This document shows, in pieces, positions 28,217 to 40,925 of a stretch of DNA of 64,000 nt. The stretch is from NCBI GenBank assembly GCA_004321915.1, contig SCQE01000030.1:1-64000 (forward strand). Direction: 5' to 3'. The notes under the pieces were generated by a model. It made no database searches. It was not told the DNA's origin and saw only the letters and a list, made by a program, of their open reading frames with translations. Made by a program: the position numbers and the translations under genes. How positions within the stretch are numbered: the first letter of the stretch is position 1; each line of letters opens with the position of its first letter. Source of the DNA: Nitrospirota bacterium (GTDB lineage Bacteria > Nitrospirota > Thermodesulfovibrionia > Thermodesulfovibrionales > Dissulfurispiraceae).

Positions 28217-29235
28217 GAATCGAAGACGGACAGATCAGCCCGCTCGCTCCCGAAGCCGACGAAGAAGAGATAAAATACGAGACGACCCTCAGGCCGCGCA
28301 CACTTGAAGAATTCGTCGGTCAGGAAAAAATCAAAGAAAATCTTAAGGTCTTCATCCAAGCCGCAACCATGCGCCAAGAGGCGCTTGACCATGTTCTGTT
28401 CTTCGGGCCTCCGGGTCTCGGAAAGACTACGCTTGCAACCATCATCGCAAACGAACTCAAGGTGAATATCAGGACCACCACAGGCCCTGTACTCGAACGG
28501 CAGGGCGACCTTGCGGCAATTCTTACCAACCTCTCGCCCGGAGATATTCTATTCATCGACGAAATCCACCGGCTACCGCGCGTTGTCGAAGAAGTGCTCT
28601 ATCCGGCAATGGAGGATTACAAGCTCGACATCATTATCGGTCAGGGCCCGAGCGCAAGGACACTGAAGATAGAACTGCCCAAATTTACACTGATAGGCGC
28701 GACAACAAGAACGGGTCTGCTCACCTCTCCGCTCAGAGACAGGTTCGGCGTTATCTGCAGGCTCGAATTCTACTCTCCAAAAGAGCTGTGCGAAATCGTA
28801 ACGCGCTCTGCCGGGCTGCTCAACATCGAGATAAAAAAAGACGCTGCTGAAGAAATATCAAAACGCTCGCGCGGCACCCCGAGAATCGCAAACAGGGTGC
28901 TCAAACGGGTCAGGGATTTTGCGCAGGTGAGGGGCGACGGCACAATCGACATGAGGATTTCTCAGGAGGCGCTCGACGCCCTCGACATAGACCACTTGGG
29001 CCTTGATGAGATCGACAGAAAACTGCTCCGCACCATCATCGATAAGTTCGGCGGCGGACCTGCGGGAGTCGAGGCTATTGCGGCTGCCTTGAGAGAAGAC
29101 AGGGAAACAATAGAGGATGTTTATGAGCCGTTCATGCTGCAGGAAGGCCTGCTCGAAAGAACGCCGCGCGGCAGACTCGCCACCAAATTCGCTTACGAAC
29201 ATTTGGGCATAAAACTCCCGCAGGGGTTGTTTTAG
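28213..29235 (+). CDS. ruvB: Holliday junction DNA helicase RuvB
   Basis: AAA+ motor of RuvAB, 340 residues. Walker [10 protein letters not shown] starts at residue 65, Walker B is [10 protein letters not shown], sensor 1 is [11 protein letters not shown], and the C-terminal winged helix ends [17 protein letters not shown]. In several phyla ruvAB is followed by queH, DUF2905, spoIID and queA. Here that order resumes only at about 40.1 kb. Confidence 0.98.
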
Positions 29236-29289
29236 AACGAAGCGTATTTTTTATTCGGGGGAGAAAGGGGTTTTTCTTTGCTATGAAGC

Positions 29290-30006
29290 ATGACTAAAAA
29301 ATCGCAACATAACCACCCGCACAAAGGACACCGGGAACGCCTAAAAAACCGTTTCCTCAACGAAAGCTTAGATTCCTTTGAAGATCATCAGGTCTTAGAG
29401 CTTCTTCTGTTTCAAGCAATTCCCCGACTCGACACAAACCCCATAGCGCATCTTCTTATTAAACGCTTCGGCAGTCTGTCCGCAGTGCTTGAGGCCGACC
29501 CGCATGATCTGGAATCGGTGGAAGGAGTAGGCCCTTCGGCAGCCGTTTTTCTTTCAATGATACCTCAAATTACACGTCGTTATTTTCTGGACCGCGTAAG
29601 ACATTCGCGCAAACCACTCACAACTTCTGAAGCTGCAGCAGAATATCTCATCCCTCTTATGGCCGGACGCGCCGAGGAAGTTTTTTATGTGATCTGTCTG
29701 GACTCCCAGCTCCGCGTGCTTTATCCCGCGCTTGTGAGCGAGGGCACGGTAAAAGACGCCGTGGTCCATCCCCGGCATGTTGTTGAGGCTGCGCTCAGAC
29801 ACAAAGCGGCCTCTGTTATACTTGCCCATAACCACCCCGGTGGAAGCATGAACCCTTCCGGTCATGACCATAAATTAACCGTCCGTCTTGTGCAGGCGCT
29901 CGGCAATATCGACATTAAAGTTGTTGACCATGTAATCGTTGCTGGGGACCAGATCTACAGTTTTGCAAGAGAAGGCGTGATGCCGGTATTTAATCTGGCG
30001 AAATGA
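29290..30006 (+). CDS. radC: RadC-family JAB/MPN-domain protein
   Basis: A 238-residue RadC/YeeS-type protein. The N-terminal helix-hairpin-helix region (LESVEGVGPSAAVFLSMIP) is followed by a JAMM metal-binding domain with AHNHPGGSMNPSGHD. Family members often sit next to mobile or defence islands, and this copy is directly upstream of the type I restriction operon. Its real function is unsettled despite the DNA repair name. It could mark the left edge of the island. Confidence 0.92.
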   Translation: MTKKSQHNHPHKGHRERLKNRFLNESLDSFEDHQVLELLLFQAIPRLDTNPIAHLLIKRFGSLSAVLEADPHDLESVEGVGPSAAVFLSMIPQITRRYFLDRVRHSRKPLTTSEAAAEYLIPLMAGRAEEVFYVICLDSQLRVLYPALVSEGTVKDAVVHPRHVVEAALRHKAASVILAHNHPGGSMNPSGHDHKLTVRLVQALGNIDIKVVDHVIVAGDQIYSFAREGVMPVFNLAK

Positions 30007-30048
30007 GTTTCTACAAGACCGAATGTGGCACAATAACCAAGGGGATAT

Positions 30049-32391
30049 ATGAGCACTGAAGCCGACGCCAGAATGGTGATAGACAAACTGCTTGAAAAAG
30101 CGGGTTGGGTCATCATGAACAAGGCACAGGTGTCAACAGAAGAAGCGTCAGCCGACGGACGGGCCGACTATCTGCTTAAAGACTCCAGAACAAGACCCCT
30201 TGCAGTCATAGAAGCAAAGCGTTTTGCCGTTGATCCTTACTCGGCAAAAGAACAAGCCAAGTCGTATGCACAGGCTCTTGGCGCTCCATTTGTTATACTG
30301 AGCAATGGGCAGGAGCATTATTTCTGGGACTACACGGACGGAGACGCCCGGCCTGTCATGGGCATGCCTTCCCAAGCCGATCTCGAACGAAGGGTCAATA
30401 TCAAGGCCCATCGCAGAGGCTCTTTTCAGGAATCATTAGCCGTATTCCCTTGCCCTGTGCGCTTTGCCTTCAAGGGCGAAGAAATCGAAACACGCCCCTA
30501 CCAGATGGAGTGCCTCAGGAAAGCTGATGATGCTCTGATCAGCGGGCGGCGGCGTATGCTCTTTGAGATGGCTACCGGAACAGGAAAGACACTGACTATC
30601 GCCATGCTGATGAAACGCTGGTTTCAGGCGGCGATAGTTTCGCGCGTCCTTTTCCTTGTTGACCGTATCGAGCTTGCGAAGCAGGCAAAAGAGACTTTTG
30701 ACGATTATCTCGGTGACTGGCCGTCGGTTATTCTTTATGGCGGCAAACGCAGTCTGCAGGGCCAAATTGTAATAGGGACGCTTGACACTATAGCCGCTCA
30801 ACTCGGACCCGGCGGGTTTGGACATGCCTATTTTGATCTGGTTGTAACGGATGAATGCCATCGCTCCATTTACAACACCCATCGGGCCACGCTCGGCCAC
30901 TTTGACGCCATACACATAGGACTGACGGCAACCCCGAATCCGGGCGAACTCAGGATGATAAGCGAACATGAACGCAGGCTGGTCCGAAACACATACATGT
31001 TCTTTGACTGCTGGGATTCTGCCAAAAAGGAAGGCAGTCCGACCTTTGAATACGGCATACAGCGTGCGATCAGTGACGGCCATCTTGCCAAGTATCGTGT
31101 TTATCATGCCGAAAGCGTCCTCACCTATGAAGGCGCAGAATGGGAAGGGGAGGAAATCAAGCCCGGCGCATGGGGCCGCGATGTCGAATCCGAGGACCGT
31201 CTGAAGACCATCATTCAGGAGTATTACTCCGCCGACAATGAGCGGTCGCTGGAACGGCCACGAAAAACAATAGTCTTTGCGGTATCGGAGAAGCAGGCCT
31301 CCATTCTTGTCCGGCTTCTAAATCGCCTGTTGTCGGATGAGGATTGCCTTCGTATAGCTTCTCAGATCAACCGTTCACCCTCTCAGGTGAGACAGGATTA
31401 TGCAAAAAAGATCACCTGCTATACCAATAATGGAAATCCGAAGCCAGTCATAGACGAGTTCAGATATGACCCTCTTCCGCTTGTAGCCGTATCCGTGGAC
31501 ATGCTCGACACCGGCTATGACCACAAAGAGGTGGAAACCCTCCTTATGTTGAGGCCTACGCAATCAGCCATCAAATATGCACAGATGAGGGGACGCGGCA
31601 GCCGCCTTTGTCCGAAGATCGGGAAGGCTGAGTTCATAATCTACGACTTTGTCGGCAACACCAAACGTTTTAACGATCAAGGCGAGGCGTATCACAAACC
31701 GCGACTTGTGGGGACAGCCCCGTTATCCGGCGTAGGCTATTCCGGGGAAGCGGAAGAGGACGTGCCGAAGGCCGCAAGCGATGAGGAGAATTATAAAGCA
31801 CGGAAAGAGGGATTCCAAGTCATTGTGGAAGGTTCCCTCACGGATGAAATACGCGCCCGAGAAATAATACTGGTCGGCCCGGAAGGTCTTGCAGTTGATC
31901 GCAAGACATACCGAGAGAAATGGGAAGAAAAGATAGTTGAACTCAGAAAGACCGACCCGACTGTAGAGAAGATATTCAGGGGCGAGGAACTGACGGAGGA
32001 TGAATGGACGGAGCTTGCCGGTCGCCTCAACTCGCCGGAATACTATTTCAAGGAAGATTCGCTTAGAAAGGCCTTTGAACAGCCGACCGGCTCGCTTTCT
32101 GATTTTATCAGGGTCGCCCTTGGCCTTGACAGGTTCCTGAGCCGGGAGGAGCGCATTGAAAAGGCTTTCAATACCTGGGTGACTGAACACTCAAGCAATA
32201 TCAACCCCGCCCAAGCTCAAATGCTCCGGCTGCTCAAGGCGCGGGTGATGACCGGTGAGGAAATAACCATTCGGCTCTTCAGCCAACCGCCCTTTTCATT
32301 GTGGGGCGGCCTGACCCGCATGGAACAACTTTTCGGAAAGGAACGCCTGCTTCAGATGGTGGATGAACTTAACACCCTGCTTGCGGCATAA
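30049..32391 (+). CDS. hsdR: Type I restriction endonuclease subunit R
   Basis: Motor and nuclease subunit, 780 residues. An N-terminal PD-(D/E)xK nuclease shows GRADYLL (Asp40) and LAVIEAK (Glu55, Lys57). The SF2 translocase has Walker A MATGTGKT (GTGKT 177-181), DECH (268-271), GLTATP and a late motif MRGRGSRLCPK. The C-terminal EcoEI_R-type domain is complete and ends LNTLLAA. An AAGGGG ribosome site precedes ATG. It heads an operon running to at least 39979. Confidence 0.96.
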   Translation: MSTEADARMVIDKLLEKAGWVIMNKAQVSTEEASADGRADYLLKDSRTRPLAVIEAKRFAVDPYSAKEQAKSYAQALGAPFVILSNGQEHYFWDYTDGDARPVMGMPSQADLERRVNIKAHRRGSFQESLAVFPCPVRFAFKGEEIETRPYQMECLRKADDALISGRRRMLFEMATGTGKTLTIAMLMKRWFQAAIVSRVLFLVDRIELAKQAKETFDDYLGDWPSVILYGGKRSLQGQIVIGTLDTIAAQLGPGGFGHAYFDLVVTDECHRSIYNTHRATLGHFDAIHIGLTATPNPGELRMISEHERRLVRNTYMFFDCWDSAKKEGSPTFEYGIQRAISDGHLAKYRVYHAESVLTYEGAEWEGEEIKPGAWGRDVESEDRLKTIIQEYYSADNERSLERPRKTIVFAVSEKQASILVRLLNRLLSDEDCLRIASQINRSPSQVRQDYAKKITCYTNNGNPKPVIDEFRYDPLPLVAVSVDMLDTGYDHKEVETLLMLRPTQSAIKYAQMRGRGSRLCPKIGKAEFIIYDFVGNTKRFNDQGEAYHKPRLVGTAPLSGVGYSGEAEEDVPKAASDEENYKARKEGFQVIVEGSLTDEIRAREIILVGPEGLAVDRKTYREKWEEKIVELRKTDPTVEKIFRGEELTEDEWTELAGRLNSPEYYFKEDSLRKAFEQPTGSLSDFIRVALGLDRFLSREERIEKAFNTWVTEHSSNINPAQAQMLRLLKARVMTGEEITIRLFSQPPFSLWGGLTRMEQLFGKERLLQMVDELNTLLAA

Positions 32392-32400
32392 GGAAAACAA

Positions 32401-33930
32401 ATGGACAGCGCACAAACACAGAATACTCTAAAGGCCCTTTGCAAGGTGATGTGGGACAACAACGTCACGAACCCTATCACTTATGTCACCCAGATTTCCT
32501 ACCTCCTGTTTCTCAAGATGCTTGAGGAGATGGACCACGAACAGCAGGAGGCCCGCAACGGAAATTACAGGTCGCTATTCGGCAAGTATAAGGATGGGAA
32601 GGAAGAACTCGATTACGACCCGCTCCGCTGGAGCGTTTTGACCTCAAACCCGGACAATGAAGCCATGCTCCGCACGCTAAGGGACACCCTGCCTTTGCTG
32701 TCGCGTCACCCAAACCTTTCGCAGGGGGCGCGGGCGATATTCCGCAATGCGGCGATAGTTATACCGAATGGAGCCACCCTTCGGAGGGCGGTGGATATTA
32801 TCGCGCCCATATCATTTCTCGGCCTTGATGCGGATATTAAGGGCGATCTCTTTGAATACCTTGCCAGCGAACTCGGCGGACAGAAAAAGGCAGCGCAATT
32901 CCGCACCCCGCGCCATCTGATAAGGGTCATTACTCAGATGGTTGACCCTCAAATCGGAGGGACGGTCTGCGATCCTGCCTGCGGTTCAGGGGGATTCTTA
33001 ATTGCCGCCTATGAGCATATCTTGCTTGCCAACACCAGCCCAGATTTTATTCACGAGAGGGTTTCTCCTGACGGGACGGTACGAAAGATCGGCATAGGGG
33101 ATAAGCTCACGCGCAGCCAGTGGGATTTCCTCCAGACAGGCGCTTTTTACGGGTTTGACGGAGACCAAGACCTTCTCCGCATGGGCGCGATGAACGCCAT
33201 GCTCCACGGTTTCGACCGCTGCCCGATGGTCCAGCGCGACTCCATATGCGGCAGCGAAGACAAATGGGACGAAATACAGTTCGATTATATTCTGGAGAAC
33301 CCGCCGTTTTCAGGCTCGCGCGGCGACGCCAAGCGCTCGCTGCGTATAGAGAAAGGCGACAAATACGTCCTTTTCCTTGCCCACGCCTTGCGGAGCCTGC
33401 GCCAAGGCGGGACAGCAGGGATAATCTTTCCAAACGGCATCCTCTTCGGCGACACCGGAAGTCATGTTACTGTTAAGGAGCGCTTGCTGCGTGAATTCGA
33501 CCTTCAGGCCGTGGTGGTCCTGCCAAAAGGCATGTTCGAGCCTTACACACCCAACCCGACCTGTTTCTTTATTTTCAAAAACACCGGGAAACCGACAAAG
33601 AACGTCTGGTTCTTCAAGGCTGACTGCGACGGCTCGTCGCTCTCAAAGGCGCGCAAGTTCGGCCCTCAGTACCGGAACGACTTCCCCGATCTTTTGAGTA
33701 TGTGGCCCAAGCGCAAGACCGCAGAAGGCCGCGCTTGGCTGGTCCCCGCAAAGAAAATTATAGACAACAACTACAACATGACCCTCTCCAGCCTCGGTCT
33801 GATCGAGGCCGAAACCATAGAACATCCGGAGCCTGAGGAGATACTCGCTTCAGTTGCCGCAAAGGAAGAGCGCATTCTCCAGCTTATTCAGGAAATGCGG
33901 GGATTGCTTGCGGGAGGGAACGGGGGATGA
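32401..33930 (+). CDS. hsdM: Type I restriction-modification N6-adenine methyltransferase subunit M
   Basis: The methylation subunit, 509 residues. An N-terminal helical HsdM_N domain is followed by SAM motif I VCDPACGSGGFL at about 190 and catalytic motif IV ILENPPFSG at about 295. The gene ends in ATGA overlap with the DUF1016 nuclease gene. No obvious truncation. It provides protective host methylation with HsdS. Confidence 0.97.
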   Translation: MDSAQTQNTLKALCKVMWDNNVTNPITYVTQISYLLFLKMLEEMDHEQQEARNGNYRSLFGKYKDGKEELDYDPLRWSVLTSNPDNEAMLRTLRDTLPLLSRHPNLSQGARAIFRNAAIVIPNGATLRRAVDIIAPISFLGLDADIKGDLFEYLASELGGQKKAAQFRTPRHLIRVITQMVDPQIGGTVCDPACGSGGFLIAAYEHILLANTSPDFIHERVSPDGTVRKIGIGDKLTRSQWDFLQTGAFYGFDGDQDLLRMGAMNAMLHGFDRCPMVQRDSICGSEDKWDEIQFDYILENPPFSGSRGDAKRSLRIEKGDKYVLFLAHALRSLRQGGTAGIIFPNGILFGDTGSHVTVKERLLREFDLQAVVVLPKGMFEPYTPNPTCFFIFKNTGKPTKNVWFFKADCDGSSLSKARKFGPQYRNDFPDLLSMWPKRKTAEGRAWLVPAKKIIDNNYNMTLSSLGLIEAETIEHPEPEEILASVAAKEERILQLIQEMRGLLAGGNGG

Positions 33931-35051
33931 AAAAAGAGTTAATTCAATACACTGAACTGCTGACACAAATCAAGGACCGTATCCGGCAGGCGCAGGTAAA
34001 GGCCACCCTTTCCGCTAATGCGGAGATGATCCTTATGTATTGGGACGTCGGACGGATGATTAATAAGCGGCAACAGGAAGAGGGATGGGGTTCGGCAGTT
34101 ATCCCGCGTCTTGCAAAAGACATTCGCAACGAACTGCCTGAGGTAAAAGGTTTTTCCGAGCGAAATATCGGCAGAATGATTGCCTTTTATCGAGAGTATT
34201 CTTGCTGTTCCCAAATTTTGCCACAGGCTGTGGCAAATTTGAGTTCAACTTTTGCTAATGCTGAAAAAGTGCCACAACCTGTGGCAAAAATGTCTGCGGC
34301 GGGTAATCCTGAAAATTTGCAGCAGCTTGTTGCAAAAGTTCCTTGGGGACACAACATACTGCTTATGGAGAAAGCCAAAGACCTGCCGTCCCGTCTCTGG
34401 TACATGCAGCAAACCATTGAGCAGGGGTGGAGCAGAGATGTTCTGGCTCAGATGATCAAGTCCGAAGCCCATAAACGACAGGGAACGGCGGTCAATAACT
34501 TTCAGGACCGTCTGCCCTCCCCACAATCGGATTTGGCGCGACAACTTCTAAAAGACCCTTACATCTTCGATTTCCTGACTCTGACCGAACCGTTTGAGGA
34601 GAGGGAACTGGAAACCGGCCTAGTAAAGCATCTGGAGAAGTTTCTTCTTGAACTCGGGCAGGGCTTTGCTTTTGTCGGGCGACAGTATCATCTGGAGGTC
34701 AGCGACAAGGACTTCTACATTGACCTGCTGTTTTACCACCTGCGGCTGAGATGTTTTGTGGTGATTGAGTTAAAGAAAGGGGACTTCAAGCCGGAATATG
34801 CCGGAAAGATGAACTTCTATTGCTCGATGGTGGACGATAAACTCAGGCATGAAAACGACGGTTCCACTATAGGTTTGATTCTCTGTCAGACCAAAGACCG
34901 CGTGCTGGCCGAATACGCATTGCGCGACATTCACAAACCCATAGGCGTTTCGGACTACGAGCTTACCCGAGCCCTGCCGGACAACCTGAAATCCAGCCTG
35001 CCGAGCATCGAGGAGATAGAGGCGGAGTTGAGCGGGGAGGCGGGGGAATGA
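33927..35051 (+). CDS. DUF1016/YhcG-family PD-(D/E)xK nuclease embedded in the hsd operon
   Basis: A 374-residue YhcG-type protein. The N-terminal DUF1016_N domain (AEMILMYWDVGRMINKRQ..GWG) is followed by a C-terminal PDDEXK nuclease (DFYIDLLFYHLRLRCFVVIELKKG: Asp, then the E-x-K pair). Between them at about residues 95-145 is a threefold repeat: LPQAVANLS, VPQPVAKMS, LQQLVAKVP. Each is encoded by a palindromic DNA unit (34217-34237, 34270-34286, 34316-34336). It overlaps hsdM and hsdS by 4 bp each. Proteins of this family recur inside type I systems and may add a nuclease or regulatory activity. The role here is not shown. Confidence 0.9.
   Translation: MKKELIQYTELLTQIKDRIRQAQVKATLSANAEMILMYWDVGRMINKRQQEEGWGSAVIPRLAKDIRNELPEVKGFSERNIGRMIAFYREYSCCSQILPQAVANLSSTFANAEKVPQPVAKMSAAGNPENLQQLVAKVPWGHNILLMEKAKDLPSRLWYMQQTIEQGWSRDVLAQMIKSEAHKRQGTAVNNFQDRLPSPQSDLARQLLKDPYIFDFLTLTEPFEERELETGLVKHLEKFLLELGQGFAFVGRQYHLEVSDKDFYIDLLFYHLRLRCFVVIELKKGDFKPEYAGKMNFYCSMVDDKLRHENDGSTIGLILCQTKDRVLAEYALRDIHKPIGVSDYELTRALPDNLKSSLPSIEEIEAELSGEAGE
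34217..34336. repeat. Three intragenic palindromic units inside the DUF1016 gene
   Basis: Unit 1 is TTTGCCACAG-G-CTGTGGCAAA (34217-34237), a perfect dyad. Unit 2 is TGCCACA-ACC-TGTGGCA (34270-34286). Unit 3 is a degenerate TTTGCA...TGCAAA (34316-34336). They are about 50 bp apart and all translate in the same frame into a (L/V)PQxVA motif, so the repeats were tolerated or selected as linker expansion. Confidence 0.75.
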
Positions 35052-36220
35052 GCGAGGTGTATCTTCCTGAAGGATGGATGTCTGATTCTTTGGGAAACTT
35101 GGTTGATATTGCAGTCGGTAAAACCCCGAGTCGTAGTGATTCCAGATATTGGGATGGCGGCGTGCATAAGTGGGCAACAATCGCAAGCATGGAATTCGGG
35201 CGGGAACTTAATGACACCAAAGAGAAAATAACAGACCTTGCGATTAAGGAAGCCAACCCGAAGCTTGTAAGAAAAGGAACGCTTATGTTCAGCTTCAAGC
35301 TGACTATTGGAAAGATGGCATTTGCAGGGTGCGATCTTTATACAAATGAAGCAATTGCAACTCTTGTTCCGAAAGACAAAAGGATAGACAAGAAGTTTCT
35401 GTTTTATGCGCTTCAAGTTGCAGACCTAACTATCAATGTTGGCGATGCAGCTAAAGGAGCAACGCTAAACACAAAGACAATGCCACTAATCGAAGTGATT
35501 TTTCCTGAAGATGTCAAAGAACAGCGCCGGATTGTGGCGCGGATCGAGGAACTGACGCGGAGGGCGGAGGAAGCGAGAAGGACGGCTGTTGAACGCGATG
35601 CTGAGTTGAATATTTTGCTTCAGGCCCTATACGGTCAAATGATCGAAGACGTTAAATGGAAGCCGCTTCATGAAGTTGCTTCGTTGGTTCGGCGCTCCAT
35701 CAAGACCAAACCCGACGAAAAATATGAAGAGATGGGTATTCGCAGTTTCGGCAGGGGAACTTTCAAAAAACCGGTGCTGACTGGCGACCAGATAGGCAAT
35801 AAGCGCATTTATCGTATCCATGAAGGCGATCTTGTCTTTAATAACGTGTTTGCCTGGGAAAAAGCGATAGCTGTTGCCAAAAAGGAAGACCACGGACGGG
35901 TGGGTTCCCATCGCTTCATTACGTATGTGCCCCATAAAGAGAAGACCACGTCCGAGTTTCTTTGTCATCATTTTCTAAGCGAGCGAGGCATAGAAGATAT
36001 ACGCGCCGCCTCCCCAGGCTCGGCAGGAAGAAACCGCACGCTCGGGCTGACGAAGCTGGAAAAAATACTGGTGCCGGTACCTGAACATGACGAGCAGAAG
36101 CGTTTCGCTGAGATCGCCAAGCGGCGGCAACTTGTCCAACAGGAGTCGTCGGGCATTGAGGCTGACGTGAAAGCATTTACAGCGGCCCTGCTTGCTAAAG
36201 CGTTCAGGAGTGAGTTGTAG
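35048..36220 (+). CDS. hsdS: Type I restriction specificity subunit S
   Basis: DNA-recognition subunit, 390 residues. Two target-recognition domains: about 8-160 (GNLVDIAVGKTPSRSDSRYWDGG) and about 205-355 (LHEVASLVRRSIKTKPDEKY..GIRSFGRGTF). Each ends in the conserved helix, EQRRIVARIEELTRRAEEAR and EQKRFAEIAKRRQLVQQESS. Both halves are intact, so a bipartite sequence is expected but cannot be read from sequence. Its stop lies 2 bp before the GHKL gene, tying that module to the restriction operon. Confidence 0.95.
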   Translation: MSEVYLPEGWMSDSLGNLVDIAVGKTPSRSDSRYWDGGVHKWATIASMEFGRELNDTKEKITDLAIKEANPKLVRKGTLMFSFKLTIGKMAFAGCDLYTNEAIATLVPKDKRIDKKFLFYALQVADLTINVGDAAKGATLNTKTMPLIEVIFPEDVKEQRRIVARIEELTRRAEEARRTAVERDAELNILLQALYGQMIEDVKWKPLHEVASLVRRSIKTKPDEKYEEMGIRSFGRGTFKKPVLTGDQIGNKRIYRIHEGDLVFNNVFAWEKAIAVAKKEDHGRVGSHRFITYVPHKEKTTSEFLCHHFLSERGIEDIRAASPGSAGRNRTLGLTKLEKILVPVPEHDEQKRFAEIAKRRQLVQQESSGIEADVKAFTAALLAKAFRSEL

Positions 36221-36222
36221 CC

Positions 36223-37098
36223 GTGACTCAGGTCATTCAGATTCCCACGCTTAATGATTCACCTGCTGATTTCAAACAGATGTTTTCTATTTGGAATAGA
36301 GCTAACGGTTATTACGAGGACGTGCATTTTGATTTTTCGCATTGCGGCTTTCTTCGCCCTAATGCCGTAGCTTTTCTTGGAGGACTTGCGAGGCTGATAG
36401 TGTCTCGCAATGGGACAGTTGTATTTGATTGGACTACCCTTAAGAATGAGTGGGTAAGAAATACTCTCAGCCAAAACGGGTTTGCCGGCGCCTTTGGCCG
36501 CACTTCATCAGGCTGGACGGGGCACTCCATTCCGTATCGGGAAGATAGATTGCGGGATGCCAACGGCATTATAGATTATCTTGAGCACTATTGGATGGGC
36601 AGAGGGTGGGTGCATGTGAGCCTGCGACTGCGTGATGCCATCATTGGGCATGTTTGGGAAATATACAATAATGCCTTTGAGCATAGCGGTTCGGAGATAG
36701 GCGTATTTTCCTGCGGACAGCACTTTCACCGGCAGAACGACTTAGTCCTTACTGTTGTAGATTTCGGTCTGGGCATTCCTGCTAAAGTTCGGACATTTCT
36801 AAGCAGTGATCCCCGTGCTGAACAATTGCCTGCCTCCGGATGCCTAAGGTGGGCTTTTCAGAGAGGCAATACTACCAAGCAGGATGAGCCGGGCGGCCTT
36901 GGTCTTGATTTGCTAAGGGAGTTCATAAGGTTGAATCAGGGGAAGTTGGAAGTCTACAGTAATGAAGGTTATGCTATTATTCAGAAAGACGGTGAGCGGT
37001 ATGAAAACCGTGACATCTCTTTTGAAGGTACGGTCGTACATATTACCCTGCGTTGCGACGAAAAATTGTACCATTTTAAAGATGAATCGCCGTTCTGA
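36223..37098 (+). CDS. STAS-like / GHKL ATPase fusion (anti-sigma-like kinase)
   Basis: A 291-residue protein. Residues of about 10-100 look like a STAS-type alpha/beta domain (VHFDFSHCGFLRPNAVAFLG..GTVVFDW). Residues of about 130-280 form a histidine-kinase-type ATPase: N-box WEIYNNAFEHSG (Glu146, Asn149/150), G1 VVDFGLGIP (Asp180) and G2 GGLGLDLL (224-230). There is no phospho-acceptor His domain, so it resembles SpoIIAB/RsbW-type anti-sigma kinases rather than sensor kinases. The start is GTG 36223 with AGGAG about 11 nt upstream. A DUF4325 STAS-like gene follows 15 bp downstream, the expected partner for partner-switching. The target is presumably the PIN or SWIM protein encoded next, as no sigma factor is present. 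Confidence 0.82.
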   Translation: MTQVIQIPTLNDSPADFKQMFSIWNRANGYYEDVHFDFSHCGFLRPNAVAFLGGLARLIVSRNGTVVFDWTTLKNEWVRNTLSQNGFAGAFGRTSSGWTGHSIPYREDRLRDANGIIDYLEHYWMGRGWVHVSLRLRDAIIGHVWEIYNNAFEHSGSEIGVFSCGQHFHRQNDLVLTVVDFGLGIPAKVRTFLSSDPRAEQLPASGCLRWAFQRGNTTKQDEPGGLGLDLLREFIRLNQGKLEVYSNEGYAIIQKDGERYENRDISFEGTVVHITLRCDEKLYHFKDESPF

Positions 37099-37113
37099 AA
37101 AGGAGACCTAATC

Positions 37114-37464
37114 ATGAAGATAGCAATTAAAGATATGATAGGGCCGCGCTGCATCATCAAGGAAGACGGCCAGAAGATTTACGACACAATAATCGCACCT
37201 TTGAAGAAGGGCGAGATCATCACGCTCGATTTCGACGGTGTGACACAATTTGCCTCGCCTTTCTTTAACTTCGCCATTGGCCAGTTGTTGAAGGACATAG
37301 AAGAAGAAAGCCTGCGCCGTCTGCTCCAGATAGTCAATCTCAATGAAACCGGCAGTCTGGTTGTTGAGCGTGTTATTGAAAACGCCGCCAAATATCACGG
37401 CAACAAGGACTACCGCAAGATAGTTGACGATATTCTCGAACAGCAAGCTAAAGAACTGGTCTGA
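37114..37464 (+). CDS. DUF4325 STAS-like protein
   Basis: A 116-residue protein. The core IITLDFDGVTQFASPFFNFAIGQLL matches DUF4325, a STAS-like domain that usually neighbours GHKL ATPases. By analogy with SpoIIAA/RsbV it could be the antagonist whose phosphorylation state is set by the upstream ATPase. The candidate acceptor residue is in the TQFASPFF loop. An AAGGAG ribosome site precedes ATG. The stop overlaps the PIN start (TGATG, 37462-37466). Confidence 0.85.
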   Translation: MKIAIKDMIGPRCIIKEDGQKIYDTIIAPLKKGEIITLDFDGVTQFASPFFNFAIGQLLKDIEEESLRRLLQIVNLNETGSLVVERVIENAAKYHGNKDYRKIVDDILEQQAKELV

Positions 37465-38075
37465 TGTCCATCAACTATGTTGTTCAAGCCGAAGTTGTAG
37501 ATATAACCGCCGATGCGCCGCAAGCCGCTGATGTCTTTCTTGTAGATACCAATGTCTGGTACTGGATGACATATCCCAATGCCACGTCTAATATTCCGAG
37601 CCGGTTGTCGGATTATCCAAACTATCTTAACAATGCTCTCGGAGCAGGTGCGAAGATACATCATTCCGGTCTTTCGCTGGCAGAGTTGGCTCACATTATC
37701 GAAAAAACGGAACGTGAGATTTATGAGAAAACCGTTGGCTCAATCAAACCAAAAGAATACCGTCATAATCATCATGCTGAGCGTTCACGCGTTGTATCTG
37801 AAATTCAAGCCGCATGGGGGCAGGTCAAGAGTTTGGCTAACCCTCTGACAACGTGTATCGACGGCCCGACTACGGAAGCGGCATTAACACGCCTTACGAG
37901 TGAAAAAGTTGACGGCTATGATCTTTTTATACTCGACTCCATGAGAAATCACGGAGTAATACAGCTCATTACCGACGATGGCGACTTCGCAACTGTCCAC
38001 GGCATTCAGGTCTTCACCGCTAACAGGAATGTTATAAATGCTGCGAGAGGGCAAGGCAAACTCCTGACAAGATGA
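37464..38075 (+). CDS. PIN-domain nuclease in partner-switch module
   Basis: A 203-residue putative RNase. Acidic residues in PIN order: Asp28 in FLVDTNVWYW, Glu74 in SLAELAHI, Asp153 in GYDLFILDSM and Asp171/172 with Asp174 in LITDDGDF. It is longer than VapC toxins owing to an inserted basic/His-rich segment (about 90-115). There is no small antitoxin next to it. Instead it is fused by overlapping frames to the STAS-like gene upstream and the SWIM gene downstream. That makes it a candidate effector controlled by the GHKL/STAS pair. Confidence 0.82.
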   Translation: MSINYVVQAEVVDITADAPQAADVFLVDTNVWYWMTYPNATSNIPSRLSDYPNYLNNALGAGAKIHHSGLSLAELAHIIEKTEREIYEKTVGSIKPKEYRHNHHAERSRVVSEIQAAWGQVKSLANPLTTCIDGPTTEAALTRLTSEKVDGYDLFILDSMRNHGVIQLITDDGDFATVHGIQVFTANRNVINAARGQGKLLTR

Positions 38076-39979
38076 AGAAACACTCTGATAAAACCTTTTC
38101 CGACATCACCTGGTCCGACCTTGAGGCTTGGGCAGGGTCGAAGATCGTATCGCGAGGGATGTCGTATAAAAAGGAACGGGCGGTACAAGGCTTATCCTTA
38201 ACCCCTGAGGGTTCTCTTCTTGCATGGGTCAGGGGGACAAGAAACTACGTCACAAGGGTCTCGTTCGAAAAGGGAAGGCTCTTATCAGTCTGCTCATGCC
38301 CGTATCATTTAGCCTGCAAACACGCCGTCGCCGTTGTGCTTGAATATCTCGACCATCTTCAAGCTGATACTGACGTGCCTTTGGCGGAAGAGGATGATGA
38401 AAGAATAGTCCTGCTGGAAGATGAGACCTTAGCCTTCGATGATGATGAAGACGATATGGATGACGATGAATATATTGAGACCGACGAACCTGATATCGAT
38501 TCCTCTCTTGAGAAGAAATCAAAGAAGGAACTCCGGAAAATGCTGAAAGGCATCATCAAGGACTATCCTGAAATCAAGAAAGAAATGGGCTTTGCGCCTG
38601 CATCGCCCAAGAAAAAAGGATGCCCTGCGCTGATCAAGTCTGTAACCAAAGCTATGGTTGTTACCAGCAGTGAGCAGGGCTGGCGCAACTATTGGAAACA
38701 CACGGGACATACGCCTGATTATTCGCCCGTCCGTGTAGGCTTGCAGCGGCTTCTCGATGAAGGGTGCGCAGATGATGTAGTCCGGTTAGGAGAAAAGCTT
38801 TTCGTAAAGGGAACAGAACAAGTCGGGCAGTCTCATGATGAAGGGGAGACCGCCGATGAGATAGCAGCGACCATGCCGATCATTTTTAAGGCCCTTGCTG
38901 AATGTTCCTTGTCCGATACCGACAAACTGGAGCGAGCTGTTGATTTTGGCCTGAGAGACGAATACGGCCTTTGCCGCGGCCTTGACGAGTTTTTGCGGAT
39001 CAGATTTGCAAAAAAGTCATGGAGCGAGCTGGCGGACCGGCTTCTTTCAAGGCTTAAGGACATGCGACCAAAAGGAAAAGGAGACTCCTTCTTTCGCCAT
39101 TATGAACGCAACAATCTGTCTGATGAAGCCATTCGCGCGTTGGAGAATGCCGGAAGAGAAGAAGAAGCCCTTGCCGTTTGCTTTCATGAAGCTGAAGCGA
39201 CCGGAAGCTTTGAGCGTCTTGTGAAGCGGCTTCGCAAAGCAGGCCGTACTGCGGAGGCTGAAGAGTGGATACGCAAAGGCGTGAAAGCGACGCAAGACAA
39301 GCTTCCGGGCATTGCGGCCTCTCTGAAAAAGGAGCTTCTTGATATCCGTCGTCGGAAGAAAGACTGGTTATTTGCTGCCGCGCTTCTTGCTGACGAGTTC
39401 TTTGAATCCCCCTCACTAAAGGATTTCGAGGAGCTTAGAAAAGCTTGTGAAAAGTCGAAAGTTTGGCCCGGGGTCAGAGCCGCATGCCTGAAGTTTCTTG
39501 AGACAGGCGAGCATCCCGGAGGCAGGCCGGATTGGCCCCTGCCTGAAACCGGCTTTGCGATATCACGGCCGGCCCGATGGCGCAAGCCACCTTTCACTGA
39601 CGTACTGATCGATATCGCCATCGAAGAAAAAAACATTGATGCCGTTGTGCATTGGTATAACATTCACAAAAAAGAAAAAGATAAATGGCCGGAAGCGCAT
39701 TTGGATGATGCTGTGGCGGATGCCATCGCCCAAGCATATCCTGATAAAGCGATTACAATCTGGAAGAATCTTGCAGAGGGACTTATGGCGCAGACCAATG
39801 TCAGCTCTTACAGTGAGGCTGTTAAATACCTGAAGAAAGTCCGAAAAAAATTGGAAGATATAAGCAAGGCTTCTGAGTGGGCTGTCTATCTGAAAGACCT
39901 GACCGAGACGAACAAGCGAAAGACACGGCTTGTTCAAATGCTTAACGCCCTAAGCGGAAAGCCGATCATTTCAAAATAA
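38072..39979 (+). CDS. SWIM zinc-finger protein
   Basis: A 635-residue protein. The SWIM motif CSCPYHLACKH (C74, C76, C82, H84) follows an N-terminal strand-rich region (WVRGTRNYVTRVSFEKG). Residues of about 107-146 are highly acidic (runs of Asp/Glu). The remaining 450 residues are helical and repeat-like, resembling TPR/alpha-solenoid arrays (LSDEAIRALENAGREEEALAVCF). SWIM fingers bind DNA or protein. It overlaps the PIN gene by 4 bp, which is strong evidence for joint function. No transposase motif was seen. Confidence 0.85.
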   Translation: MKKHSDKTFSDITWSDLEAWAGSKIVSRGMSYKKERAVQGLSLTPEGSLLAWVRGTRNYVTRVSFEKGRLLSVCSCPYHLACKHAVAVVLEYLDHLQADTDVPLAEEDDERIVLLEDETLAFDDDEDDMDDDEYIETDEPDIDSSLEKKSKKELRKMLKGIIKDYPEIKKEMGFAPASPKKKGCPALIKSVTKAMVVTSSEQGWRNYWKHTGHTPDYSPVRVGLQRLLDEGCADDVVRLGEKLFVKGTEQVGQSHDEGETADEIAATMPIIFKALAECSLSDTDKLERAVDFGLRDEYGLCRGLDEFLRIRFAKKSWSELADRLLSRLKDMRPKGKGDSFFRHYERNNLSDEAIRALENAGREEEALAVCFHEAEATGSFERLVKRLRKAGRTAEAEEWIRKGVKATQDKLPGIAASLKKELLDIRRRKKDWLFAAALLADEFFESPSLKDFEELRKACEKSKVWPGVRAACLKFLETGEHPGGRPDWPLPETGFAISRPARWRKPPFTDVLIDIAIEEKNIDAVVHWYNIHKKEKDKWPEAHLDDAVADAIAQAYPDKAITIWKNLAEGLMAQTNVSSYSEAVKYLKKVRKKLEDISKASEWAVYLKDLTETNKRKTRLVQMLNALSGKPIISK

Positions 39980-39987
39980 ATCTTCTC

Positions 39988-40104
39988 ATGCACTATTGCC
40001 CGTCCACCGAATATCAAAGCAGGCTCAACTCTATAAAAACGCTTGAGCGGTTTTGGTCGATGGGGTTAAAATATAAAAACTGCAATGAGCGCCTAAAAAC
40101 ATGA
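39988..40104 (+). pseudogene. Remnant of a queH-like gene
   Basis: A 38-codon open frame encodes TEYQSRLNSIKTLERFWSMG followed by LKYK. This matches the intact QueH at 40926-41468 (TEYKARLDSVKLLERLWSME, LQYK) at 16 of 24 positions. Neither the N-terminal Cys motifs nor the C-terminal half is present. Its stop overlaps the next gene's start as ATGA. It looks like a fossil left at the right edge of the restriction island. Confidence 0.7.
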
Positions 40105-40505
40105 AAACAATTATTGTCGATTACTCAAAAGCCATTGATGCAAAAACGCCTGTGGCAGGAGATCAATCCGGATCGAGCGGGAAGTTCGTCCAGATCAGGC
40201 ACGAAGATTCGGAATATATCGTATTCGCCCCGAAAGAAACAGCCCCGTACCATGCGGACATTATCGAAAAGTTTTGCGCGGAAATGGGGATAGACGGCTT
40301 TCTCGACAAACAAGAGAAGCGTTTCGAGATACATGATCCGGCATGGGACATCGTGGGAGGCGGCAAGTTCGAGATGGACAGACAGGGGCTTTACGTCCGC
40401 CTCTATGACAACTCGATGGCCTATGGCAAATTCGAGCGCGACGGCATGGAAGACAAGCTGCGCGGCACCGAGGAGTTTGCCGGTTATGAAATACGCGTCG
40501 AGTAA
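40101..40505 (+). CDS. Janus/Ocnus (PHPT1-like) family protein
   Basis: A 134-residue protein resembling eukaryotic phosphohistidine phosphatase PHPT1. Matching blocks: APYHADIIEKF (His51, the position of the PHPT1 catalytic His), WDIVGGGKFEM (GGG 86-88) and YDNSMAYGKF (105-109 SMAYG), then KLRGTEEFAGYEIRV. The N-terminal DYSKAIDAKTPVAGDQSG is seen in prokaryotic members. It may remove phosphate from protein His or Lys, but activity is unproven. It opens the queH-side gene run. Confidence 0.7.
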   Translation: MKTIIVDYSKAIDAKTPVAGDQSGSSGKFVQIRHEDSEYIVFAPKETAPYHADIIEKFCAEMGIDGFLDKQEKRFEIHDPAWDIVGGGKFEMDRQGLYVRLYDNSMAYGKFERDGMEDKLRGTEEFAGYEIRVE

Positions 40506-40528
40506 AACGAAAGCCCCGGCCCAAAACG

Positions 40529-40903
40529 ATGCCTTACAAAACGAGCAGGGAACGGTTTGAGGAGCTTGCCGGAGACGCGCTCCGGAGCATACCGAAAAAA
40601 TTTCGCAGAAAGTTTCGGAATGTAGCAATAATCGTCGAGGACTACCCTGCTAAGAACATCGTGGAAGAAATGCAGATACCCCGGAATGAACTTATGGGGC
40701 TTTTCAGCGGACGGCCTGTCGGAGAAGACGGAGGCTTTTTCGAAATCCCTTCCCCCTATCCGAATACGATACATCTTTACCAAAAAAATATAGAAGAGGC
40801 ATGCTCCTCTGAGGCCGATCTTATCGTCGAAATTCGAAAGACCATGCTTCATGAAGTGGGGCATTATTTCGGACTTTCAGAAAACGACCTCGATGATTTA
40901 TGA
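40529..40903 (+). CDS. Metallopeptidase-family (DUF1025) zincin-like protein
   Basis: A 124-residue minimal zincin. The zinc motif MLHEVGHYFGLSE lies near the C-terminus, preceded by NTIHLYQKNIEEAC. It belongs to the short DUF1025/possible-zinc-metallopeptidase group. No signal peptide. The substrate is unknown. It follows the PHPT-like gene by 23 bp. Confidence 0.88.
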   Translation: MPYKTSRERFEELAGDALRSIPKKFRRKFRNVAIIVEDYPAKNIVEEMQIPRNELMGLFSGRPVGEDGGFFEIPSPYPNTIHLYQKNIEEACSSEADLIVEIRKTMLHEVGHYFGLSENDLDDL

Positions 40904-40925
40904 TTTTAAATAGCGCCCATATTTT

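What the first reader, a model, noticed from the sequence alone, without database searches (positions are those of the whole stretch)
36223..39979. Candidate new system: STAS/GHKL ATPase - DUF4325 - PIN nuclease - SWIM protein attached to a type I restriction operon
Four genes follow hsdS without a break (2-bp gap, 15-bp gap, 1-nt overlap, 4-bp overlap). The first is a STAS-like domain fused to an anti-sigma-type ATPase with all ATP-binding boxes. The second is a STAS-like DUF4325 protein, a plausible antagonist. Together they look like a SpoIIAB/SpoIIAA-type partner switch, but no sigma factor is present. A PIN nuclease with intact acidic residues and a SWIM zinc-finger solenoid protein follow instead. 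Inference: the switch restrains the PIN RNase and releases it on infection or when restriction fails, with SWIM as nucleic-acid sensor or scaffold. This would be phosphorylation-type control of a PIN toxin instead of a small antitoxin.
Basis: partly seen in the sequence, partly recalled or inferred. Interest (0 to 1): 0.8.

Follow-up and report, generated by a model that had tools for sequence, protein, structure and literature searches.

The report
vapKSC toxin switch behind type-I restriction
The first three of the four genes are a recently published bacterial self-shutdown switch (vapKSC), in which a kinase releases an RNA-cutting toxin from its guard protein after DNA damage or phage attack; here the switch is built directly into a restriction-enzyme operon, and the fourth gene is a separate passenger.

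Summary
The genes, coordinates, order and spacings are as reported. Genes 1-3 (36223-38075) are a vapKSC operon, published in June 2026 (Chambers et al., EMBO J, PMC13373217; PDB 9z7o = Escherichia VapS2VapC2). Window VapC is 46% and VapS 52% identical to E. coli homologues. The residues on which the published switch depends are present: GHKL boxes, VapS Ser48, VapC acidic site. Two corrections. The STAS protein (VapS), not the ATPase, restrains the PIN nuclease; the ATPase is the releasing kinase, by published analogy triggered by ssDNA. SWIM is not part of the system: no SWIM gene was found at over 80 other vapKSC loci, and its closest relative sits in a type III restriction operon. New here: vapKSC is repeatedly placed inside operons of methylation-based defence (type I hsd with a conserved hsdS-vapK junction, HmaA-[KSC]-HmaB, PglXI-[KSC]-helicase, type III), with about 14 changes of linkage on the tree. 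In the window's genus, radC-hsd-vapKSC-SWIM is an insertion between ruvB and queH. New member of a known kind; coupling of restriction to abortive shutdown is inferred, not shown.

The parts
29290..30006 (+). radC-like gene, first gene of the inserted block
30049..32391 (+). hsdR, type I restriction subunit (EcoAI-like, 780 aa)
32401..33930 (+). hsdM, N6-adenine methylase subunit
33927..35051 (+). YhcG/DUF1016 PDDEXK nuclease (PADLOC candidate PDC-S02), accessory gene in the hsd operon
35048..36220 (+). hsdS, specificity subunit
36223..37098 (+). vapK: STAS-like + GHKL kinase, GTG start 2 bp behind hsdS; E146, N150, H154, D180, G182, G184, G225, G227
37114..37464 (+). vapS: DUF4325 STAS antitoxin, predicted phospho-acceptor Ser48
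37464..38075 (+). vapC: PIN RNase toxin; D28, N30, E74, D150, D153, D172, D174
38072..39979 (+). SWIM zinc-finger + helical solenoid protein (PADLOC candidate PDC-S62); co-transcribed passenger, not part of vapKSC
40000..40077 (+). relic of a second queH copy, inner edge of the acquired block

Best explanation
The first three genes are vapKSC, a kinase-released toxin-antitoxin switch acting in abortive infection. VapS (the DUF4325 STAS protein) binds the PIN RNase VapC and blocks it through its STAS face and C-terminal helix. When DNA damage or phage infection produces single-stranded DNA, VapK (STAS-GHKL) is activated, phosphorylates VapS on Ser48 and frees VapC, which cleaves RNA and stops growth. 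Here vapKSC is the tail of a type I restriction operon (hsdR-hsdM-yhcG-hsdS-vapK-vapS-vapC-SWIM), so DNA breaks made by restriction, or infections that survive it, could feed the same switch; that last step is inference. The SWIM protein is a separate passenger of restriction operons. Shown here: gene set, residues, recurrence, operon embedding, insertion. Shown in the paper for Escherichia: VapC toxicity, VapS antitoxin, the S48E effect, phage protection. Inferred: that the window copy behaves likewise, that its trigger is ssDNA, and that restriction feeds it.
For: Homology to the solved Escherichia VapS2VapC2 complex: VapC 4e-51, VapS 6.6e-34, family profiles 2.5e-66 and 7.9e-40. Published mechanism read: VapC toxic and D28A inert; VapS rescues but S48E and delta-C do not; VapC D28A, VapS S48A and VapK F54A each abolish about 2-log protection against phage Bas42. 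The window has VapC D28 and VapS S48 at the same residue numbers. In 72 intact loci position 48 is always Ser/Thr and the PIN and GHKL catalytic residues are essentially invariant. The VapK ssDNA-site aromatic most probably corresponds to window F43, which is F, W or Y in 68 of 69. VapS-VapC overlap by 1 nt in about half of the loci. Among broken loci, VapK or VapC may be lost, but VapS was never lost beside an intact VapC. vapKSC lies in hsd, Hma, PglXI and type III contexts, with a 2-bp hsdS-vapK gap in the window, L008, L009, L014 and L022.
Against: No experiment on this copy. VapK activation by ssDNA is proven biochemically only for CapK; for VapK it rests on AlphaFold 3 and one mutant. 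About half of the classified loci have no restriction system in the fetched flank (28 of 58), so restriction is not required for the module. Linkage to restriction could be ordinary defence-island clustering. VapK and HsdR identities correlate only weakly (rho 0.33 against 0.96 for HsdR-HsdM). Frameshifts in MAG contigs can be sequencing errors.
Confidence: 0.93

Rival explanations
1. The vapKSC identification holds, but its place behind hsdS has no functional meaning: it is defence-island neighbourhood plus read-through transcription, and VapK answers to general DNA damage regardless of restriction.
For: 28 of 58 classified loci have no methylation-based system in the fetched flank; stand-alone copies exist on a Deinococcus plasmid and beside an E. 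coli prophage; HsdR-VapK identities correlate weakly.
Against: The module is inserted inside operons, not merely nearby: 2-bp hsdS-vapK gaps in several phyla, between HmaA and HmaB, between PglXI and a helicase. Ten loci keep the same hsd subtype with vapKSC, and all three Nitrospirota genomes with a close HsdM carry vapK and at least part of vapS behind it.
Confidence: 0.45
2. One reading: SWIM is a nucleic-acid sensor or scaffold for the ATPase-STAS-PIN switch.
For: 4-bp overlap with vapC; a zinc finger plus solenoid is a plausible nucleic-acid binder.
Against: SWIM absent from every other vapKSC locus examined; relative found in a type III restriction operon; vapKSC alone protects E. coli in the published test.
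Confidence: 0.04
3. A classical partner switch in which the ATPase itself binds and holds the PIN protein (SpoIIAB-like) and DUF4325 is the antagonist.
For: GHKL and STAS domains as in SpoIIAB/SpoIIAA.
Against: The homologous VapS, not VapK, is solved bound to VapC and neutralises it alone; vapS and vapC, not vapK and vapC, are translationally coupled; VapK is broken beside intact VapS and VapC in L050 and L064.
Confidence: 0.03

Closest known systems
vapKSC (Chambers et al. 2026, EMBO J, PMC13373217; PDB 9z7o)
   Same: Gene order, domains, catalytic and phospho-acceptor residues, sizes (203-aa VapC, 116-aa VapS), S48 and D28 at identical positions
   Different: Embedded as the tail of a type I restriction operon with a YhcG nuclease and a SWIM gene; from another phylum (Nitrospirota relatives); not tested
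CapK/CapS DNA-damage regulators (same paper)
   Same: GHKL kinase phosphorylates a STAS-domain serine; found behind restriction systems
   Different: CapK has an HTH, CapS a winged HTH and represses transcription; the window pair has neither
SpoIIAB/SpoIIAA and RsbW/RsbV partner switches
   Same: GHKL kinase and STAS serine chemistry
   Different: No sigma factor; the STAS protein is the restrainer of the effector and the kinase its releaser
VapBC type II toxin-antitoxin
   Same: PIN-domain RNase toxin held by a co-encoded antitoxin
   Different: Antitoxin is a STAS protein regulated by a kinase; no VapB DNA-binding antitoxin
PrrC anticodon nuclease with type I restriction EcoprrI (from general knowledge)
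   Same: RNA-cutting toxin encoded with a type I restriction system as a second line of defence
   Different: Unrelated proteins; PrrC is held by the restriction complex itself

Membership tests
vapKSC | Three-gene operon kinase - STAS - PIN, same strand, tightly spaced | tested here: met
   same order in 72 intact loci
vapKSC | VapK = STAS + GHKL kinase without N-terminal HTH | tested here: met
   the STAS assignment of the N-terminal part rests on predicted topology and on similarity to VapK homologues
vapKSC | Intact GHKL N, G1 and G2 boxes | tested here: met
   E146/N150/H154, D180/G182/G184, G225/G227
vapKSC | VapS STAS with conserved Ser/Thr at position 48 | tested here: met
   Ser 67, Thr 5 of 72; window Ser48
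[quoted passage not shown]
   homology to Escherichia VapS runs to residue 114 of 116; presence only, function not tested
vapKSC | VapC PIN nuclease with D28 and the other acidic residues | tested here: met
vapKSC | VapK ssDNA-site aromatic (Escherichia F54) | tested here: inconclusive
   Most likely window F43, assigned through an in-frame ATG upstream of the annotated start of an E. coli homologue; the E4736 sequence itself was not available
vapKSC | VapC toxicity, VapS neutralisation, phage protection | not testable with these tools
   Known for Escherichia sp. E4736 only
CapKS | CapK N-terminal HTH and CapS C-terminal winged HTH | tested here: not met
VapBC type II toxin-antitoxin | VapB-type antitoxin | tested here: not met
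   Antitoxin gene is a DUF4325 STAS protein
SpoIIAB/SpoIIAA partner switch | Cognate sigma factor as effector | tested here: not met
   No sigma factor among the genes of the operon; the effector is PIN
Type I restriction-modification | hsdR, hsdM and hsdS present and full length | tested here: met

The most novel reading that the evidence does not exclude
hsd-vapKSC is a composite defence system: restriction products, or stalled or inhibited restriction complexes, feed ssDNA directly to VapK, so that first-line DNA cutting and second-line RNase shutdown work as one programmed cascade; and the same plug-in has been adopted independently by type I, type III, PglXI/BREX-like and Hma systems.
Probability: 0.3. 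Interest if true: 0.6.

Novelty: new member of a known kind. Interest (0 to 1): 0.4.

Why it matters
It gives a natural case in which a restriction enzyme and a DNA-damage-triggered RNase toxin share one operon. That makes the idea of front-line restriction handing over to abortive infection, which the vapKSC/CapKS authors raised for CapKS, directly testable. It also links Pfam DUF4325, for which the open literature searched here offers no function under that name, to a phospho-switch antitoxin, and it shows vapKSC inserted inside Hma, type I, type III and PglXI operons, where the 2023 PADLOC library does not label it.

Tried and rejected
Literature search by domain names (DUF4325, STAS, PIN, HATPase) found nothing relevant; the identity came only from the PDB sequence search with family profiles. 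SWIM as part of the module: rejected. Plasmid search for VapC, viral scan for SWIM, plasmid and viral searches for HsdM: no hits. ATPase-DUF4325 pairs with other downstream effectors: looked for in 14 Nitrospirota loci; the scanned neighbours of PIN-less pairs are mostly housekeeping genes, so no alternative effector was established. Promoter and terminator scan of the operon: no more hits than shuffles. Foldseek of VapK returned only GHKL-type ATPases; the N-terminal STAS assignment rests on predicted topology and homology.
Full report
Observation. Pfam calls them HATPase_c, DUF4325, PIN and SWIM. Upstream are full-length hsdR, hsdM, a YhcG/DUF1016 nuclease and hsdS, all co-directional and nearly without gaps. 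Promoter-like and terminator-like matches in the operon do not exceed chance.

Recurrence. A scan of one genome for each of 84,980 species with an ATPase profile gave 80 loci. In nearly all, the order is ATPase - DUF4325 - PIN: 72 loci have one intact ORF for each gene, counting the window and a few records from other searches, and the rest are cut by contig ends or broken. They cover Cyanobacteriota, Pseudomonadota, Nitrospirota, Thermodesulfobacteriota, Myxococcota, Bacillota, Chlorobiota and other phyla. A stand-alone copy is on a Deinococcus plasmid, and one is beside a prophage in E. coli. The second and third genes overlap by exactly 1 nt in about half of the loci. The SWIM gene was found at none of them.

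Identity. The DUF4325 and PIN profiles hit PDB entry 9z7o, 'Escherichia VapS' and 'Escherichia VapC', at 7.9e-40 and 2.5e-66; the window proteins alone score 6.6e-34 and 4e-51. The complex is described in Chambers et al., EMBO J 2026 (PMC13373217), which defines vapKSC. In that paper VapC is a toxic PIN nuclease, VapS is its STAS antitoxin, and VapS S48E or loss of its C-terminus abolishes neutralisation. VapK is a CapK-like STAS-GHKL kinase. Mutations in VapC (D28A), VapS (S48A) or VapK (F54A) remove about 2-log protection against phage Bas42. ssDNA activation is biochemically proven for CapK; for VapK it rests on modelling and the F54A mutant, because VapK was insoluble.

Fit of the window copy. 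VapS Ser48 and VapC Asp28 fall on the same residue numbers as in Escherichia. Over 72 loci, position 48 of VapS is Ser (67) or Thr (5); VapC D28, N30, E74, D150 and D153 are invariant; VapK E146, N150 and H154 are invariant. The VapK model (pLDDT 90.9) shows an N-terminal beta-alpha-beta-alpha-beta-alpha part and a GHKL domain, and no HTH. An in-frame ATG five codons upstream of the annotated E. coli start suggests that the published F54 is window F43, a position that is aromatic in 68 of 69 sequences; this assignment is an inference. In broken loci VapK or VapC is lost in several ways, but VapS is never lost beside an intact VapC (L021, L023, L026, L036, L050, L064). That is what a restrainer (VapS) and a trigger (VapK) predict, with the caveats of small numbers and possible MAG sequencing errors.

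The wiring differs from SpoIIAB/SpoIIAA: the STAS protein, not the kinase, holds the effector. SWIM does not belong: its closest full-length relative found (65-67% identical) is in a type III restriction operon, and the family is PADLOC's uncharacterised candidate PDC-S62. It looks like another passenger of restriction operons.

What this study adds. Of 58 loci with enough flank to classify, 30 have a methylation-based system within the fetched flank: 22 type I, 4 Hma, 2 PglXI, 2 type III (one of the type III labels, L083, rests on a weaker hit). In Hma the module sits between hmaA and hmaB (L068, L070, L071, L079, and L128 in Nitrospirota). In L077 and L078 it lies between a PglXI methylase and a helicase. 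In the window, L008, L009, L014 and L022 the hsdS-vapK gap is exactly 2 bp. On the concatenated tree, presence or absence of such a system changes at least 14 times (a quick tree, so approximate). The window and nine further loci share one hsd subtype (HsdR 71-83% identical to the window's), but Chlorobium-type VapKs that are 64-65% identical to the window's sit behind a type I system whose HsdR is only 25-27% identical. HsdR-VapK identities correlate at rho 0.33 against 0.96 for HsdR-HsdM. So vapKSC is recruited repeatedly rather than being a fixed part of one restriction system. The paper reports 36% of vapKSC within 10 kb of another immune gene and 88 of 443 capKS immediately behind a restriction system; its main text does not describe vapKSC inside Hma, PglXI or hsd operons, and its supplementary tables were not readable here.

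Acquisition. In a genome of the same genus ruvB and queH are adjacent, about 13 bp apart. In the window an 11.7-kb stretch with radC, hsdR-hsdM-yhcG-hsdS, vapKSC, SWIM and two small genes lies between them. A 78-bp relic of queH just behind the SWIM gene (40000-40077) suggests that radC through SWIM arrived as one block from a relative where it already stood beside queH; this is an inference.

Mechanism and confidence. Shown here: gene set, residues, recurrence, embedding, insertion. Shown by others in a homologue: toxicity, neutralisation, release by a phosphomimic, phage protection. Inferred: the same behaviour in this copy, ssDNA as its trigger, and restriction-made DNA ends as a source of that ssDNA. 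The rival that the hsd linkage is only defence-island clustering stays open, because about half of the classified vapKSC loci have no restriction system beside them.

Noticed in passing
window 29235-40925 versus L171: Clean insertion of 11.7 kb between ruvB and queH compared with a same-genus genome; a 78-bp queH relic at 40000-40077 marks an inner edge just behind the SWIM gene.
   Followed up: yes
window 40101-40903: Two small genes between the queH relic and intact queH: an Ocnus/Janus-family (phosphohistidine-phosphatase-like) protein and a zincin-like metallopeptidase; absent from the same junction in the same-genus genome.
   Followed up: partly
L123 369-1607, L124 6377-7780, L132 5659-6918: Single proteins of Nitrospirota that join STAS-like, GHKL and DUF4325 domains (kinase and its likely substrate in one chain), with no PIN gene nearby; they keep a serine at the switch position.
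   Followed up: partly
L125 6137-7216 and similar hits: HTH-GHKL-DUF4325 proteins of about 350-370 aa; the L125 example appears to lack the switch serine; function unclear.
   Followed up: no
L175 (E. coli JNE25-001): vapKSC in E. coli lies between mntR and prophage tail and baseplate genes; found in 2 of 5,426 complete E. coli genomes with this query.
   Followed up: partly
L160 1157-10358: A type III restriction operon carrying the SWIM protein, a DUF2971 protein and a PDC-S23/S05-type protein as extra genes.
   Followed up: partly
L128 13187-16540: HmaC in this locus carries an N-terminal Swt1-like HEPN domain in front of DUF499, a possible second RNase in the same operon as VapC.
   Followed up: no
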